Shown one piece after another: positions 36,663 to 42,282 of a DNA stretch of 42,282 nucleotides. This stretch comes from Tranzscheliella williamsii. Its lineage: Eukaryota; Basidiomycota; Ustilaginomycetes; Ustilaginales; Ustilaginaceae. The notes under the pieces were generated by a model. That model searched no databases. It saw nothing but the letters and a program-made list of their open reading frames with translations, and had not been told where the DNA came from. The number at the start of each line of letters is the position of its first letter. Position 1 is the first letter of the stretch. The stretch lies in assembly GCA_023212725.1 (NCBI GenBank), contig JALBYF010000102.1:1-42282 (forward strand), given 5' to 3'. Position numbers and translations under genes: made by a program.

Positions 36663-37163
36663 TTTACATGCACTACCGTTATCTTCATATCTATCTGCCC
36701 AAGCTGTTCAGCTCCACACCCAGTATCGATCGTTACCCAGGCTGGTCCCAGCACAATGAATATTTGTCCTATCCAATGTTTCTACCCATGGGCCGCATTT
36801 ACAACCCTCGGCCGGCGCAGCGTGAACGGTTGAGGCGGGTGGCGTTGAGCTGTTGCGCTGACGGTGAGCCAAGGCAGGAACGGGGCTGGTATGAGAGGCT
36901 GCAGGCCATTGCAACCGGCGACGCGGATCGGGCGTATCTATAATGAAATGTTCAATCCAGGGCCGTTATATAAGGGAAGTTATGTATTGAACCCCCTTTT
37001 CCCTAAACATGACCTGGCTTTCCCAATTTGCCCACTGAGACACAAAAGCACATCTCCCCATTGAAGTTGTGCAAATGAGAGCTCCAGCTTCTCTGTCCAT
37101 CAGGGACTGCTCATTGACATCCTTTGGAAAGCTGTTGGCATCACAAGAAGCATATTATGACAG
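36663..37163. other. KDM3 3' flank and transition to repeat-rich DNA
   Basis: About 500 bp in which GC content falls noticeably. The first part should hold the KDM3 3' UTR. From about 36950 the sequence is AT-richer and unlike the preceding genes. No gene seen. Confidence 0.4.
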
Positions 37164-37780
37164 TGTTGTAGCTCTTTTCTAGCTCATGCAATCATGGTTC
37201 AACACAACATTAACCCAACAGGCCTGAGCAAGGAAAGTGTAACGGGCATGCCGTCCGTGCCAGAGTCGTCGCTTGAGATGAGTGTGACAGGGTTGGTCTG
37301 CGACCCTGCACATGTCATAGCTCTCAGTGAGCCACATGCGCACCATCGCGCGTCCCGAAGGTAAGAATGGTGATGCCAGTGGCTGCAGGATCAGCCATTG
37401 GATCACACACATGCACACTCACTTAATATCGAGTTCCCACTATGTGGAGCTGTCGGCTGTGCCATGTCTCCACAGTAGGTGGATGATAGACCACTCACAT
37501 GTATATAGTACGGCACTCCAAGACTGGAGGAGGTTGACCCTCATCCAGTCTAGTCAATTCACACATGGTCTATACCATTGAGGGTATCTGTTGGAACTTT
37601 AGTGCTATGGGCGCCCAAGTCCTAACAGTCCGGCACCACGGTGAAGGTCCCGGGTACCTTGGACCGACAACTCCGATATATTTATCAAGTACCAAGACAC
37701 CGGTACAAACAACCGGTGGGAGAACCCGACAAACATTTCCACATGAAAGGTGCTGCCGCGGCTCAACGCACTCTACAACA
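37164..37780. mobile_element. Candidate LTR-like segment X (TGTTGTAG...CTACAACA)
   Basis: 617 bp bounded by perfect 8-bp inverted ends TGTTGTAG and CTACAACA of the TG...CA type expected for LTRs. Inside is TATATA at 37502-37507, then 13 nt and an inverted repeat AGACTGGAGGAGG / CCTCATCCAGTCT (37521-37533, 37539-37551). The same TATA-hairpin block recurs near 39025-39076. No target-site duplication flanks the ends (GACAG against ATGAT), so the boundaries may be wrong or the copy rearranged. No coding potential. Confidence 0.38.
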
Positions 37781-38114
37781 ATGATCTGTGAAAGACCCAG
37801 GTCCATGGAGTTGCAAGCCCGGAGATAGGACCGGCTCACCGGGGAGAATGGTCAAGGTATCCGAGCCATCGGCCCAAGCAAGGTCTCTCTAGAGCAAGCA
37901 CCCAATCCTACAACGATAGGACTGGGTACCCATAGCTACGAGCATCTCCTATGACCATCTCACACTCTACCTACACAACAAGATAAGTACAAGCTATATA
38001 AAGGACACCAAAGTATGAGACAATGTATGGTAGTCCTATCAATCTAGATCACTCTGCACTAGCCCGAATCCTCACACGACTGTGCCGAGTTAAGTCCCTG
38101 TTGCTCCTACCCCC
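37781..38114. other. Repeat-derived spacer before solo LTR 1
   Basis: AT-rich, with a TATA box (CTATATAAAGG near 37996). It continues, in sequence character, on the far side of solo LTR 1 at 38669, meaning the LTR interrupted a pre-existing segment. No coding frame. Confidence 0.4.
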
Positions 38115-38663
38115 TGTTAGAACCTGGCTGTGTGTCGGCGAACCCTATAAGGTGTCGCACGCACGTGATCCCCTTAGGGCCCTCATTAGAACGAATTCTT
38201 CTCTGCGTCCTACGCAGGGAGCGAATTCCTTCTCTGCAAGAATATGTTCTTTGTTCCCAACGGAACGCAAGTACACGATGTTCGCTCCCTGCTGGGAAAC
38301 ATCGTCTGCTGTGCTGAACTCCATTGACACGGAGGCACTGGACGAGAGCTACCCTAGGTGAGCTCTCGCCTGCTCAGCAGAGACACTCACCATATGCCCA
38401 CTATTGCGCCTATGGTCCACACTTCGTTCCCCTTATAGCACGAAGTGTACATATATAAGCACTATGCCCTCGACCCCCGACGAGAGCAACATGTCCATTC
38501 TTACAACATTCTTCCTAGCCCCAAGTGTGACGAACGCTCACTCTGTGAACCGATTGACTCACTTGAGATTTAGCATCAACTTGCATTAGGTAAACTATCG
38601 CCGTCTACTGTGAACGTCATATCCTACCAAAGCGCGTTGACCACCAGACGCACAAGTTTAACA
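38115..38663 (+). mobile_element. Solo LTR, family A copy 1, TSD CCCCC
   Basis: 549 bp starting TGTTAGAACC and ending GTTTAACA, so the ends form the inverted TGTTA/TAACA pair of an LTR. It is flanked by CCCCC at 38110-38114 and 38664-38668, a 5-bp duplication (low complexity here). About 97% identical by eye to 39288-39837. It contains ACACTTCG...CGAAGTGT (a hairpin) just before TATATA at 38452-38457 and a remnant hairpin CTCG/CGAG after it. No internal coding sequence of the element remains, as expected after LTR-LTR recombination. Confidence 0.9.
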
Positions 38664-39106
38664 CCCCCTTCCGTCACGGTACCCATCTCCTGGACAAGTA
38701 CGCTGGGTCCCCTCTCCCTCTGCTAAGTCGCACAGTATCTCCCTGCTCAACAGGCAGCAGGGGCAATACTGACGGGCACTCTGCCCGGCACAGCATGGCG
38801 GAGCACGTGCGCTCTTTACAGTGCCCAACGCCAACACCACCAACACCATCAGCATGACTACCGCCTGTTACGGGTTTGGGGAACCTTGGGCCGGTATAGC
38901 TCAAGGGGCAGCCGCCATGGCGCTGCCGTGGCCTTCATATAAAAGTATGGGTGCATAAACAGTTCCCACCAGTGGACGTGGTGCTAGCGGGTCTACCCAT
39001 TGTTCAGGTGGAAGAGAGACTATGTATATAGGCAGCGCTTTCAAGACTGGAGGAGGACTGGTTCCTCATCCAGTCTAGTTAATACTAAGCATATCTCTAC
39101 CTCTCG

Positions 39107-39136
39107 GTATAGTTCGTAGGGTCCTACGAACTATAC
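39107..39136. repeat. Near-perfect 30-bp palindrome
   Basis: Arms GTATAGTTCGTAGG (39107-39120) and CCTACGAACTATAC (39123-39136) are exact complements around a 2-nt centre. This is the first and longest hairpin of the cluster. Confidence 0.93.
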
Positions 39137-39209
39137 TCCGGTACGCTGAGTACTGATAGGCGGGTGCGCAACACGCACGCCTAAGTTACGCTGATACTAA
39201 TCACACCAG

Positions 39210-39234
39210 CGCTGTAGCGCCTCTCGCTACAGCG
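39210..39234. repeat. Perfect 10-bp stem hairpin
   Basis: CGCTGTAGCG (39210-39219), loop CCTCT, CGCTACAGCG (39225-39234). Third hairpin of the cluster. Confidence 0.93.
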
Positions 39235-39287
39235 GTATCAATTGTCGTTGCACTACAGGGTAAAGGGTCGCCACCCGTAGTGCGTCA

Positions 39288-39837
39288 TGTTAGAATCTGG
39301 CTGTGTGTCGGCGAACCCCATAAGGTGTCGCACGCACATGATCCCCTTGGGGCCCTCATTAGAACAAATTCTTCTCTGCGTCCTACGCAGGGAGCGAATT
39401 CCTTCTCTGCAAGAATATGTTCTTTGTTCCTAATGGAACGCAAGTACACGATGTTCGCTCCCTGCTGGGAAACATCATCTGCTGTGCTGAACTCCATTGA
39501 CACGGAGGCACTGGATGAGAGCTACCCTAAGTGAGCTCTCGCCTGCTCAGCAGAGACACTCACCATATGCCCACTATTGTGCCTATGGTCCACACTTCGT
39601 TCCCCTTATAGCATGAAGTGTACATATATAAGCACTTTGCCCTCGACCCCCGGTTGAGAGCAACATGTCCATTCTTACAACATTCTTCCTAGCCCCAAGC
39701 GTGACGAACGCTCACTCTGTGAAGTGATTGACTCACTTGAGATTTAGTATCAACTTGCATTAGGTAAACTATCGCCGTCTACTGTGAACGTCATATCCTA
39801 CCAAAGCGCGTTGACCACCAGACGCACAAGTTTAAGA
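39288..39837 (+). mobile_element. Solo LTR, family A copy 2, TSD CGTCA
   Basis: 550 bp from TGTTAGAATC to GTTTAAGA (terminal CA mutated to GA). Flanked by CGTCA at 39283-39287 and again at 39838-39842, a perfect 5-bp target-site duplication that fixes both ends. Same orientation as copy 1, but the separate duplication shows that it is an independent insertion. TATATA at 39625-39630 is preceded by the ACACTTCG hairpin and followed, after 11 nt, by CTCGACC CCC GGTTGAG. Confidence 0.94.
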
Positions 39838-39900
39838 CGTCACTCTCTGTCGTCACTGCCATTGAGTCCCTGAACGGGCGACTCACACGGTGGTCCTAGG

Positions 39901-40230
39901 TGTTACGCCCCAGGGTCTGGTAACCTCTGGCACTGGGTAAAGCACCGGTGTGACCGGTGCTGGGGTAGAGGCTGGGGTACTCGGTGGTGCACCGCTACGA
40001 GAGGCCGTACGATGGCGACGAGGTGGTTAGGGTCAAGTACTTCTCCTATTGGGTAGCAATAGACTAAATACATTCGACAACCTCCAGGAGGGGAGGTTGT
40101 GGGTACTGTTGGGTATATATACCGTAGACTTGGGGCGGGGATAGGGGTAGAGAAGGCACGGACCAGGTATGGTGCCGCAGATTGAGGTGTCGTGCCGGCA
40201 ACCGGTCTTGTTAGGTGGTGAACCGTAACA
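39901..40230 (-). mobile_element. 3' LTR of a Ty3/gypsy-like element (minus orientation)
   Basis: 330 bp bounded by perfect 7-bp inverted ends TGTTACG / CGTAACA. Read on the minus strand it is immediately preceded by CCACCGGGGGGGTAA (40245-40231), a G-rich polypurine tract of the kind found just before the 3' LTR, and the reading through it encodes RHRGGNVTV, a common C-terminal ending of fungal gypsy polyproteins where the polypurine tract is translated. TATATATA (about 40114-40121) is followed after 13 nt by the hairpin ACAACCTCC / GGAGGTTGT. The outer flank is CTAGG (39896-39900); its partner would lie beyond the window. Confidence 0.72.
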
Positions 40231-40565
40231 TTACCCCCCCGGTGGCGAGGGGTCAGCTCCGGTGACACCGGTAGGCCTGGCGCGTCGATTAGCTCAGCAC
40301 TGGGAATAAGGTTAGGGTGAGATGAAGTGTGCGTGCGCAGCAGAGATTTAGGTAGGGTGGACGAGCGCTGCTTCTCTCTTTCCCGCCACCACCTCCTTGA
40401 TCGACTGGGGACTCGGCGCCATGCATCCAGGTGAGTATATGGTGTTTCAGGCGGGGGTGGTGGGTGATGAGGGCGTCAGGTGGCGGCTGACGCGTTGGAT
40501 TTGGTCTGTTAGACCACAGCAGCCGGCTCCGCTCCACCCGGCGCGAGGATCCCAACGAGGCGGCT
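40231..40565 (-). pseudogene. Probable gypsy polyprotein C-terminal remnant
   Basis: Adjacent to the 3' LTR on the minus strand. A frame through here ends with PELTPRHRGGNVTV and crosses into the LTR, but is closed upstream by TGA near 40480, and the alternative phases are short. No integrase, RNase H or reverse-transcriptase motif is visible, so this is at most the degraded end of pol or untranslated internal sequence. Confidence 0.35.
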
Positions 40566-40570
40566 GGCGG

Positions 40571-41098
40571 TATTAAACTTGTGCGTCTGGTGGTCAACGC
40601 GCTTTGGTAGGATATGACGTTCACAGTAGACGGCGATAGTTTACCTAATGCAAGTTGATGCTAAATCTCAAGTGAGTCAATCGGTTCACAGGGTGAGCGT
40701 TCGTCACACTTGGGGCTAGGAAGAATGTTGTAAGAATGGACATATTGCTTTCGACCGGGGGTCGAGGACATAGTGCTTATATATGTACACTTCGTGCTAT
40801 AGGAGGGACGAAGTGTGGATCATAGGCACGAAGATGTTCGTATGGCGAGCCCTCCTTAAGGGGCTCTCGTCAAGTGCCTGCGTGTCGCTGGAGTTCGACA
40901 TGGAAGGCGATGTTTCCCTGCGAGGAGCGAACATCGGCTGCTTGCGTTCCCTTGGGAAGAAAGAACACTTCCCCGCAGAGAAGGAATTCGTCCCCCCTGC
41001 TGGCGTGCAGGGAAGGAATTCGTTCTCATCGGGGATCGCAAGAGTGGCACGTGCGTGCGACAGCTCACCGAGCTATCCGACACAGCCAGATTCTAACA
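40571..41098 (-). mobile_element. Solo LTR, family A copy 3 (inverted), TSD GGCGG
   Basis: 528 bp whose reverse complement starts TGTTAGAATCTGGCTGTGT and ends CAAGTTTAATA, clearly homologous to copies 1 and 2 but more divergent. Flanked by GGCGG at 40566-40570 and 41099-41103, a perfect 5-bp duplication. On its sense strand TATATA (40783-40778) is followed after 12 nt by TCGACC CCC GGTCGA, the best-preserved version of this hairpin. It sits inside the gypsy-like element and is therefore younger than that element. Confidence 0.94.
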
Positions 41099-41170
41099 GG
41101 CGGTGCCCTGACGCTCCGTACGGTGGACTCGCCGACTAACGCTCGTCGGGCGAGCGAAGGTTCTTTGCCG

Positions 41171-42217
41171 ATGGTTCCTATGCCGGCGCCTCGGTTGGGT
41201 GAGCTACGGCTCGGGGTGGGTACGATCGGTCCAGCTTCTGGAGGACCTCCGGTCGTCGGGGACAGCACAGCCGACGGGGCAGTTCCCGGCGCCATTCGTT
41301 CTGCCCCGGTGGAATCTCTGCCACCAACCCCTGGGCTACCGGGCGGAACGAATGCTCCTTCCCCCGGCGTAGCACCTCAAGCACCTACCGCTGGGGGAAC
41401 GACCCAGGCCGCCGACCTCTTTCGTGGTGAGTCGGACTCCTTGCCTCCCTGTTCGCCTCTGCCCGTCAACGACGGCGTACCCGACGGTGACCTCCCGGTG
41501 TCTGTCACCGCCGACGCTCCCTCGCCCGGTTCAGCAGCACCAGAGTCGCCGATGGTGTTCGTAGAGACTGAACCGGTCGGCGATTCTGGTGGGGAGTCGT
41601 CCAGTTCAGCCTCCGATGGTGGGGATGGCTGGACTGGGGTAGGCTTGTGGGACCCTCTCCCGGGGCCCGGCCCTCGCTCGAAAGAGGAGGGTCTGGTCGA
41701 AGACCCCTGGCGCTCGTGCTACGCGTGCTTGGTTGCCCCTGGCGGGCCATGCCGCTGCAAGGTTCGAGTGCCGGGTGAGCGTTGCACGCGCTGCGATGAC
41801 AAGCAGATTGTGTGTGACGCTCTGGGCCGCGACACCGGGATTGGTGTCCGTAGGGAGGGGGAGTTCCGGCGGGCAGCCTACCTGGAGCTGCTGGCCAGAT
41901 GGCGGGAACACGGTGGTGTGGCGGAGTGGCGACCCCACCCAGAAGCCACCTTGCCGCAGATCCGCAGGCGGTTGACTCACCTGTCGGCGGAGTTGCAGGC
42001 GCAATTTCCCGCCGTCTGGGCCCGAGATCAGGCGAAGGCGGACGAGGGGCACGGGAGTCGTCGTGGTCATTCGCGCCTGGGCCCCGGTGAGGGTTCACGG
42101 TCGAGTGCCCAAGGGGTACCCTCCCAAGGTCAACCGGCGATTGACCGACCTTTGTCCGAACATGGTCGCTTCGTGGCGACCGCGCTGGTGGAGATGAGCA
42201 GGGCATATACGACTTAG
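41171..42217 (+). CDS. Cysteine-rich, putative metal-binding protein encoded antisense to the gypsy-like element
   Basis: 348 aa from the ATG at 41171 to TAG at 42217. Residues 1-165 are Pro/Gly/Ser-rich and acidic towards the end (GESSSSASDGGDGW). Residues 183-215 hold seven cysteines in the order CxxC-x7-CxC-x8-CxxC-x6-C (CYAC...CRC...CTRC...C), suggesting one or two zinc sites. The region after it (LELLARWREHGGVAEW, LTHLSAELQAQFPAVWARDQ) is predicted helical, followed by a Ser/Gly tail. I do not recognise the family. The frame is open further upstream through solo LTR copy 3 (to 40874) but that part is LTR sequence. It lies opposite to the orientation inferred for the retroelement. It could be an accessory antisense gene of the element, or a gene captured by or next to it. 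Confidence 0.5.
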   Translation: MVPMPAPRLGELRLGVGTIGPASGGPPVVGDSTADGAVPGAIRSAPVESLPPTPGLPGGTNAPSPGVAPQAPTAGGTTQAADLFRGESDSLPPCSPLPVNDGVPDGDLPVSVTADAPSPGSAAPESPMVFVETEPVGDSGGESSSSASDGGDGWTGVGLWDPLPGPGPRSKEEGLVEDPWRSCYACLVAPGGPCRCKVRVPGERCTRCDDKQIVCDALGRDTGIGVRREGEFRRAAYLELLARWREHGGVAEWRPHPEATLPQIRRRLTHLSAELQAQFPAVWARDQAKADEGHGSRRGHSRLGPGEGSRSSAQGVPSQGQPAIDRPLSEHGRFVATALVEMSRAYTT

Positions 42218-42282
42218 CTAACTGGGGATACGCTCTAGCGTAGAGCTGGCGAGGAGTACTATCCGGGTAGACGGGTCAGTCT

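What the first reader, a model, noticed from the sequence alone, without database searches (positions are those of the whole stretch)
37502..40783. Shared TATATA - 11 to 13 nt - hairpin module in LTR-like units of different sequence
Segments X and Y have TATATA, exactly 13 nt, then a hairpin with 13-bp arms (AGACTGGAGGAGG / CCTCATCCAGTCT) and different loops. The gypsy-like LTR has TATATATA, 13 nt, then ACAACCTCC/GGAGGTTGT. Family A copies 2 and 3 have TATATA, 11-12 nt, then a 6-7 bp stem around CCC; in copy 2 a base change is accommodated as a G-U pair. In copy 1 the stem is reduced to CTCG/CGAG. Sequence differs while position and pairing persist, which suggests selection on structure at the probable 5' end of the element RNA (start of R), for example for template switching, packaging or translation control. 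I know of no standard description of this arrangement for fungal LTRs.
Basis: partly seen in the sequence, partly recalled or inferred. Interest (0 to 1): 0.78.

Follow-up and report, generated by a model that had tools for sequence, protein, structure and literature searches.

The report
LTR promoter hairpins before RNA start
Dead jumping-gene ends in a smut fungus carry a short self-complementary stretch between the TATA box and the point where the element's RNA probably starts, so the stretch is real but probably sits just outside the RNA start rather than at it.

Summary
The window tail is a nest of LTRs in a Ustilaginaceae smut. X and Y are not independent: they share an 81% identical block and are two of at least six related LTR types ('XY'). 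XY is the strong case: TATA, 12-18 nt, then a stem with three doubly changed pairs. The G lineage, with a second LTR type H, is moderate (18 of 30 copies p<=0.05). Family A's stem is decaying, mainly by CpG-type changes.

The main correction concerns the RNA start. A full-length chromodomain Ty3/gypsy element with G-type LTRs has a primer-binding site exactly complementary to GTCGAATGTA at the base of the hairpin, as in self-primed Tf1; an H copy has the same junction. That puts the inferred start of R after the hairpin, 39-45 nt from TATA in 28 of 28 copies with long enough flanks. The hairpin is then the end of U3. A different hairpin starts at the inferred RNA 5' end.

Loop inversions between relatives point to template switching, so covariation alone does not prove selection. 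The function and the true RNA start are untested.

The parts
37502..37551 (+). LTR X: TATATA (37502-37507), 13 nt, inverted repeat 37521-37533 / 37539-37551 (12 of 13 paired), loop TTGAC
39025..39076 (+). LTR Y: TATATA (39025-39030), 13 nt, inverted repeat 39044-39056 / 39064-39076, loop ACTGGTT
40077..40121 (-). LTR G: TATATATA (40121-40114), 13 nt, inverted repeat ACAACCTCC / GGAGGTTGT (40100-40092 / 40085-40077); inferred last part of U3
40069..40078 (-). GTCGAATGTA: inferred start of R and self-primer; exact complement of the primer-binding site TACATTCGAC found after the C84 and C79 LTRs (the window copy has no primer-binding site)
40032..40078 (-).
38452..38484 (+). LTR A copy 1: TATATA, 11 nt, stem reduced to CTCG/CGAG
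39625..39658 (+). LTR A copy 2: TATATA, 11 nt, CTCGACC CCC GGTTGAG (one G-U, CpG-type change)
40751..40783 (-). LTR A copy 3: TATATA (40783-40778), 12 nt, TCGACC CCC GGTCGA
37283..37588 (+). 5' part of LTR X (TGTGACAGGG...), cut by Z at target GTATC; X goes on at 38735-38865
   Evidence: target-site duplication read
37589..38734 (+). LTR Z (TGTTGGAAC...GTCGCACA) with A1 inserted at 38115-38663 (target CCCCC); its TATATA at 37995 has no significant hairpin
38866..39900 (+). LTR Y (TGTTACGGG...) with A2 inserted at 39288-39837 (target CGTCA), cut short by LTR G (39901-40230, minus)
40571..41098 (-). LTR A copy 3 with 5-nt target duplication GGCGG

Best explanation
These are core promoters of LTR retrotransposons of a smut fungus. 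In two LTR lineages, XY and G/H, an inverted repeat fills much of the space between the TATA box and the point where the element RNA begins. It is roughly the last 20-35 nt of U3. The RNA made from the 5' LTR therefore lacks it, and only the 3' LTR copy of the RNA carries it, directly before the second R.

In G/H the RNA start is set by a Tf1-type self-primer: the first 10 nt of R (GTCGAATGTA) pair with the primer-binding site after the LTR. The repeat most likely helps to fix the start-site region as promoter DNA, or acts as RNA at the 3' U3/R border. Its arms are kept alike partly by template switching between them.

Shown: the repeats, their positions, the primer-binding-site complement, the near-constant TATA-to-block distance, and the loop inversions. 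Inferred: the RNA start, the extension of this layout to XY, and the function.
For: Position: in the C84 element (LTR pair with one difference in 367 bp; RT, integrase and chromodomain in one open 1607-aa frame) the 5' LTR is followed by T then TACATTCGAC, the exact complement of GTCGAATGTA, which lies at the base of the hairpin. An H-type LTR at C79 ends in the same junction; its own block has one CpG-type change (ATCGAATGTA), other H copies have GTCGAATG. A genome-wide search for the 17-nt junction finds C84 and C79 exactly and C15 with one mismatch outside the 10-mer; the reversed control pattern gave 1 match at up to 2 mismatches. TATA-to-block distance is 39-45 nt in 28 of 28 G/H copies with otherwise different U3. 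The block is nearly invariant.

Repeat: 14 of 14 XY representatives p<=0.05; 3 of 13 XY pairs doubly changed, 0 of 2000 reassortments of whole arms pair as well; G/H stems differ in sequence but end 1-5 nt before the GAATG anchor, 18 of 30 at p<=0.05 against simple shuffles.

Reach of XY: a V-LTR query matches just its TATA-hairpin part at C31:16440-16503, 1.2 kb after the integrase of a gypsy frame on the same strand.

Template switching: loops of W1/W2 (AGGAT/ATCCT) and U/U2 (CTTCT/AGAAG) are reverse complements, 2 of 45 loop pairs.
Against: No RNA 5' end has been mapped. No primer-binding site could be read for XY or A: copies whose ends I saw run into unrelated flanks, and the contig-edge V copy at C78 shows, by eye, no such site. 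Many G types have no significant hairpin (9 of 12 representatives; 12 of 30 copies). The C84 copy itself gives p=0.14 with dinucleotide shuffles. Z has none, and the piece of the C67 element's presumed 3' LTR that I could read shows no TATATA. Extra stems occur elsewhere in most of these LTRs. The inner pairs of XY are conserved in sequence, which a protein site would explain as well. A-C cells are not rarer than G-U cells overall (25 against 15), so there is no sign of selection on the plus-strand RNA alone. The compensatory change in U2 is CpG-type on both arms and may be two ordinary decays. G arms do not vary less than the rest of the LTR (0.059 against 0.048).
Confidence: 0.5

Rival explanations
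1. One reading: RNA starts just before the hairpin, so the hairpin caps the 5' end of the RNA (start of R) and acts in strand transfer, packaging or translation, like TAR-type stem-loops.
For: Position and pairing persist in XY. Some G-U pairs are shared within XY types (pair 3 of V and U). R-start stem-loops are known in retroviruses (PMC2664473, passages).
Against: The hairpin begins about 17-27 nt after the first T of TATA (sequences), very close for a start site (recalled knowledge of promoters; no smut data found). In G/H the self-primer complement begins only at the hairpin base. A separate hairpin begins at that point. In A, G-U cells are fewer than A-C cells, 3 against 12.
Confidence: 0.17
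2. Mutational by-product: short inverted repeats arise and stay matched in these LTRs through template switching by reverse transcriptase or DNA polymerase, with no function in the repeat itself.
For: Loop inversions W1/W2 and U/U2, the latter together with a two-sided arm change, which is however CpG-type on both arms. PMC8794818 calls a compensatory change with loop inversion the strongest support for the model and extremely rare; PMC8604942 gives arm homogenisation and spacer inversion as its marks (passages read). C15 has R-U5 inverted between the 10-nt self-primer and primer-binding-site repeats. Extra stems occur in most of the LTRs tested.
Against: It does not explain the near-constant place after TATA and before R, nor the conserved inner arm sequence GATGAGG/CCTCATC in XY types whose flanks have diverged. 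X arms vary less than most of the LTR (5 of 476 windows as low), although Y does not separate (105 of 402).
Confidence: 0.22
3. Coincidence of separate things: XY has a conserved palindromic protein-binding site, G/H and A have short stems of the size expected by chance and CpG decay, and the shared layout is the reader's selection.
For: 9 of 12 G representatives not significant. A arms decay. Z has none. X and Y are one related group. CpG-compatible sites diverge about 14 times faster than others in X (0.191 against 0.014), which imitates G-U and compensatory changes.
Against: 18 of 30 G/H copies reach p<=0.05 with stems of different sequence at one anchored place. In a scan of 131,923 non-redundant bases, of 22 pairings of a stem of 10 or more with a TATAWA within 60 nt upstream, 13 lie at 10-19 nt, although related copies and overlapping TATAWA are counted apart.
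Confidence: 0.11

Closest known systems
Tf1/sushi group of self-primed chromodomain Ty3/gypsy retrotransposons (Tf1, Tf2, Tj1, Tosmo)
   Same: Primer-binding site next to the LTR end is complementary to the start of R; chromodomain after the integrase in the C84 element. PMC4600332 and PMC10085805 (passages read) describe this arrangement in fission yeasts.
   Different: Here an inverted repeat sits between TATA and the self-primer, and the three-duplex 'pretzel' could not be shown. XY and A show no readable primer-binding site.
Stem-loops at the start of R in retroviral LTRs (TAR of lentiviruses, gamma- and betaretroviral R loops)
   Same: A hairpin near the RNA 5' end with structure kept better than sequence (PMC2664473, passages). 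The downstream R hairpin of G (40078-40032) fits this.
Quasipalindromes evolving by template switching (PMC8794818, PMC8604942, passages read)
   Same: Loop inversion between relatives; a possible compensatory change together with loop inversion.
   Different: The passages I read treat RNA genes and yeast coding DNA; here it is an LTR promoter, where reverse transcriptase is a natural further source.
Conserved LTR layout of Benachenhou et al. 2013 (PMC3601003, passages read)
   Same: TGTTRNR...YNYAACA ends, TATA box, R-U5.
   Different: The passages I saw describe no inverted repeat between TATA and the start of R.

Membership tests
Tf1/sushi self-primed chromovirus (G lineage) | Primer-binding site beside the 5' LTR complementary to the 5' end of R | tested here: met
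   Exact 10-nt complement in C84. The C79 (H) copy has the same primer-binding site, but its own block has one CpG-type change. C15 has the 10-mer too. The window copy has the R block but no primer-binding site.
Tf1/sushi self-primed chromovirus (G lineage) | Gypsy order RT then integrase, with chromodomain | tested here: met
   C84 minus strand: RT 126125-125643, rve 124577-124275, Chromo 123683-123540, each reported in an open frame of 1607 aa
Tf1/sushi self-primed chromovirus (G lineage) | Two further duplexes flanking the primer duplex ('pretzel') | tested here: inconclusive
   Best flank complements p=0.17 and 0.16 (C84), 0.065 and 0.57 (C79)
Tf1/sushi self-primed chromovirus (G lineage) | mRNA 5' end mapped to the self-primer | not testable with these tools
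   No expression data; inferred from the primer-binding site and the 39-45 nt TATA distance
Tf1/sushi self-primed chromovirus (XY lineage) | Self-complementary primer-binding site | not tested
   G/H only, by inference: the inferred R start comes after the 3' arm, or overlaps its last 1-2 nt. XY and A: not testable here.
Quasipalindrome under template switching (XY) | Loop inversion between relatives | tested here: met
   2 of 45 loop pairs, W1/W2 and U/U2; the two-sided arm change of U2 is CpG-type and could be separate decays
Known structured RNA family | Match to an Rfam 15 model | tested here: not met
   0 matches up to E=1 in window 36700-42282

The most novel reading that the evidence does not exclude
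A fold-back spacer is a selected core-promoter module of smut LTRs. The inverted repeat starts about 20 nt after TATA, where the strands would be opened, and ends at the transcription start 40-50 nt after TATA. In the opened promoter it folds out and delivers the polymerase to a fixed start, which self-primed elements need because the primer is the first bases of the RNA. Template switching during reverse transcription keeps the arms matched, so the module changes sequence freely while keeping its fold.
Probability: 0.13. Interest if true: 0.75.

Novelty: new variant of a known kind. Interest (0 to 1): 0.42.

Why it matters
Self-primed retrotransposons need a precise RNA start, because the first bases of the RNA are the primer. 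A structure between TATA and that start, kept while its sequence turns over, would be a new handle on how start sites are fixed. The set also holds footprints that look like template switching (two loop inversions; an R-U5 inversion between primer and primer-binding site). It is therefore a good place to separate selection on a fold from a mutational process that imitates it.

Tried and rejected
RNA 5' end from C15: I first read the C15 locus as a run-off at the RNA 5' end (note). The 40 bases read showed element-internal sequence before the R block, so it is an R-U5 inversion between the two 10-nt repeats and maps no 5' end. Rejected.

Primer-binding site of XY from C78: the V LTR at the contig edge is followed by sequence in which I see, by eye, no complement to the R region. 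No help.

C67 element: no LTR pair in the two stretches fetched; what looks like a 3' LTR start after a G-tract (judged by eye) shows no TATATA in the part seen.

Copia at C102: the RT match ends 980 bases before the contig end and only the 5' LTR region was read; a 5-bp stem after TATATAAA gives p=0.01. The half-tRNA-iMet reading of its primer-binding site is from memory.

G-U evidence in family A: rejected. Rfam: no match. TATA-to-start distance in smuts: two papers listed, not read.

Counts and dropped rows: one search counts only stems with at least 8 pairs near a TATA; the copy with a deleted 5' arm (L068/L094) and the L051 variant are left out. One search leaves out copies with short flanks. 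One search takes only copies with 60 nt upstream and a TATA or TATTTA in them, and uses the furthest one; two of the 30 copies fall out for short flanks. One search took 16 of 18 distinct G rows; two rows cut by insertions were left out and H rows not used. One search counts BLAST pieces, not whole copies. In one search the stem and loop lists were chosen by hand: the window's A1 stem was left out, one G/H stem of unequal arms was skipped, only ten 5-nt loops were compared, and L051 (loop AGCAG, the reverse complement of V's CTGCT) was left out because Z interrupts it. Stem counts are against 30 simple shuffles.
Full report
WHERE IT IS. The window is contig C5 of an 18.18-Mb, 135-contig genome. 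Its genes match RNB, JmjC, ubinuclein and NMD3 families; NMD3 is 94% identical to Pseudozyma hubeiensis and 93% to Sporisorium reilianum, so this is a smut of the Ustilaginaceae. The tail is a nest of LTRs. X (from 37283) is cut by Z (37589-38734, target GTATC), which is cut by A1 (38115-38663, target CCCCC). Y starts inside X at 38866 and is cut by A2 (39288-39837, target CGTCA) and by G on the minus strand (39901-40230, no target duplication seen). A3 (40571-41098, minus, target GGCGG) lies beyond. Each LTR type has many relatives in the genome: 37 matches for A, 50 for the X/Z query, 69 for the X/Y query, 49 for G (pieces, lower bounds).

XY LINEAGE. Searches show at least six types (X, Y, W, V, U, T) and further subtypes. 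The usual spacer after the six TATA letters is 13, range 12-18. Among 13 distinct stems, pairs 4, 6 and 7 of 13 change on both sides (C-G/G-C, G-C/C-G, G-C/A-T; the last is a CpG-type change in one copy). 91% of cells pair against 32-47% when the partner is slid by 1-3, and no reassortment of 3' arms in 2000 pairs as well. The inner arm GATGAGG/CCTCATC is conserved as sequence too, with G for T in X and Y. A V-LTR query matches only its TATA-hairpin part at C31:16440-16503 (83%), 1.2 kb after the integrase of a 1579-aa gypsy frame on the same strand. XY therefore probably belongs to Ty3/gypsy; I could not read that stretch.

G/H LINEAGE AND THE START OF THE RNA. C84 carries a full-length element: two 367-bp LTRs with one difference (in the hairpin loop), and RT, integrase and chromodomain in one open frame. 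After the 5' LTR end TAACA come T and TACATTCGAC, the exact complement of GTCGAATGTA in the LTR, which lies at the base of the hairpin. A second LTR type, H, has the same block. Its C79 copy has the same junction, although that copy's own block reads ATCGAATGTA, one CpG-type change. A genome-wide search for the 17-nt junction gives these two exactly and C15 with one mismatch outside the 10-mer; the reversed control gave 1 match within 2 mismatches. [quoted passage not shown] passages). The distance from TATA to the block is 39-45 nt in 28 of 28 copies with 60 nt upstream, although the U3 sequences differ. In the RNA it can then be present only at the 3' LTR.

A second hairpin, GTCGAATGTATTTAGTCTAYTG...GAC, starts at the inferred RNA 5' end. 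Its structure was taken from the C84 copy. 89% of cells pair over 16 distinct rows (of 18; two cut by insertions left out) against 38-52% when slid. Against shuffles of the 3' letters, paired cells are reached in 12 of 500, the covariation score in 8 of 500, and the two doubly changed pairs in 64 of 500, so support is moderate; two of its 19 pairs mostly fail outside C84. This is the better candidate for a 5'-end RNA structure, and its first ten bases are also the self-primer.

Stems before the block differ widely (ACAACCTCC/GGAGGTTGT, GCGCCCG/CGGGCGT, TGGGTCTTC/GGAGACCCG, CGCCCT/AGGGCG, CGACCCTTG/CAGGGGTCG). 18 of 30 copies reach p<=0.05 and 8 of 30 p<=0.01 against simple shuffles, so 12 do not reach 0.05. 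With the stricter test most G types are not significant, C84 included (p=0.14).

FAMILY A. Of 19 distinct copies, 6 keep 7 pairs, 8 keep 6 and 5 keep 5. The changes are mainly CpG-type: 3 G-U against 12 A-C cells in 14 distinct stems. Arms vary more than the rest of the LTR (0.141 over 8 sites against 0.054), and G arms do not differ (0.059 against 0.048). X arms are quieter than most windows (5 of 476), Y arms are not distinct (105 of 402). CpG-compatible sites diverge 0.191 against 0.014 at other sites in X. The G-U pair in copy 2 is therefore most simply ordinary decay.

TEMPLATE SWITCHING. The loops of W1 and W2 (AGGAT, ATCCT) and of U and U2 (CTTCT, AGAAG) are reverse complements, within similar (W) or nearly identical (U) flanks: 2 of 45 loop pairs against about 1 in 1024 expected per pair. 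U2 also carries a G-C to A-T change, CpG-type on both arms, so it may be one template switch or two decays. PMC8794818 names compensatory change with loop inversion as the strongest support for template switching and as very rare; PMC8604942 gives arm homogenisation and spacer inversion as marks (passages). At C15 the whole R-U5 is inverted between self-primer and primer-binding site, which is the same kind of event with a large loop, or recombination at short repeats. Pairing here can thus persist without selection on the fold.

VERDICT. The inverted repeats are real and non-random in XY, moderate in G/H, and fading in A. Their most likely place is the end of U3, between TATA and the RNA start, not the RNA 5' end; for XY and A this is by analogy only. 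Selection on the fold is possible but not shown. I saw no description of such a repeat between TATA and R in the passages read of PMC3601003 and PMC2664473, nor in the listings. That is a limited search of open papers only.

Noticed in passing
40078-40032 (minus) and the same block in L003, L006, L011, L012, L084, L096 and others: 47-nt hairpin that begins at the inferred RNA 5' end; its first 10 nt are also the self-primer, so hairpin and primer duplex would compete.
   Followed up: partly
G000:C15:566-908, L102: R-U5 of a G-type LTR is inverted between the 10-nt self-primer and primer-binding-site repeats; a fossil of pairing between them or a recombination at short inverted repeats.
   Followed up: partly
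L066, L025 (W types); L045, L003, L065 (U types): Hairpin loops inverted between relatives, once together with a two-sided (CpG-type) arm change.
   Followed up: partly
38419-38448 (A1) and the U-type LTR in L045: A further inverted repeat upstream of or around TATA: ACACTTCGTTC/GCACGAAGTGT before TATATA in A; AGCACTCCC/GGGAGTGCT with TATAA in the loop in U (read by eye).
   Followed up: no
X, Y, A, G LTR families: CpG-compatible sites diverge about 3 to 14 times faster than other sites; decay of methylated CpG or similar is the main source of copy differences.
   Followed up: partly
[not shown]
   Followed up: partly
39107-39136: Y has a second, longer hairpin about 30 nt after the first (GTATAGTTCGTAGG GT CCTACGAACTATAC).
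   Followed up: no
40874-42217: 447-aa frame overlapping A3 and beyond, no Pfam match; nature unknown.
   Followed up: no
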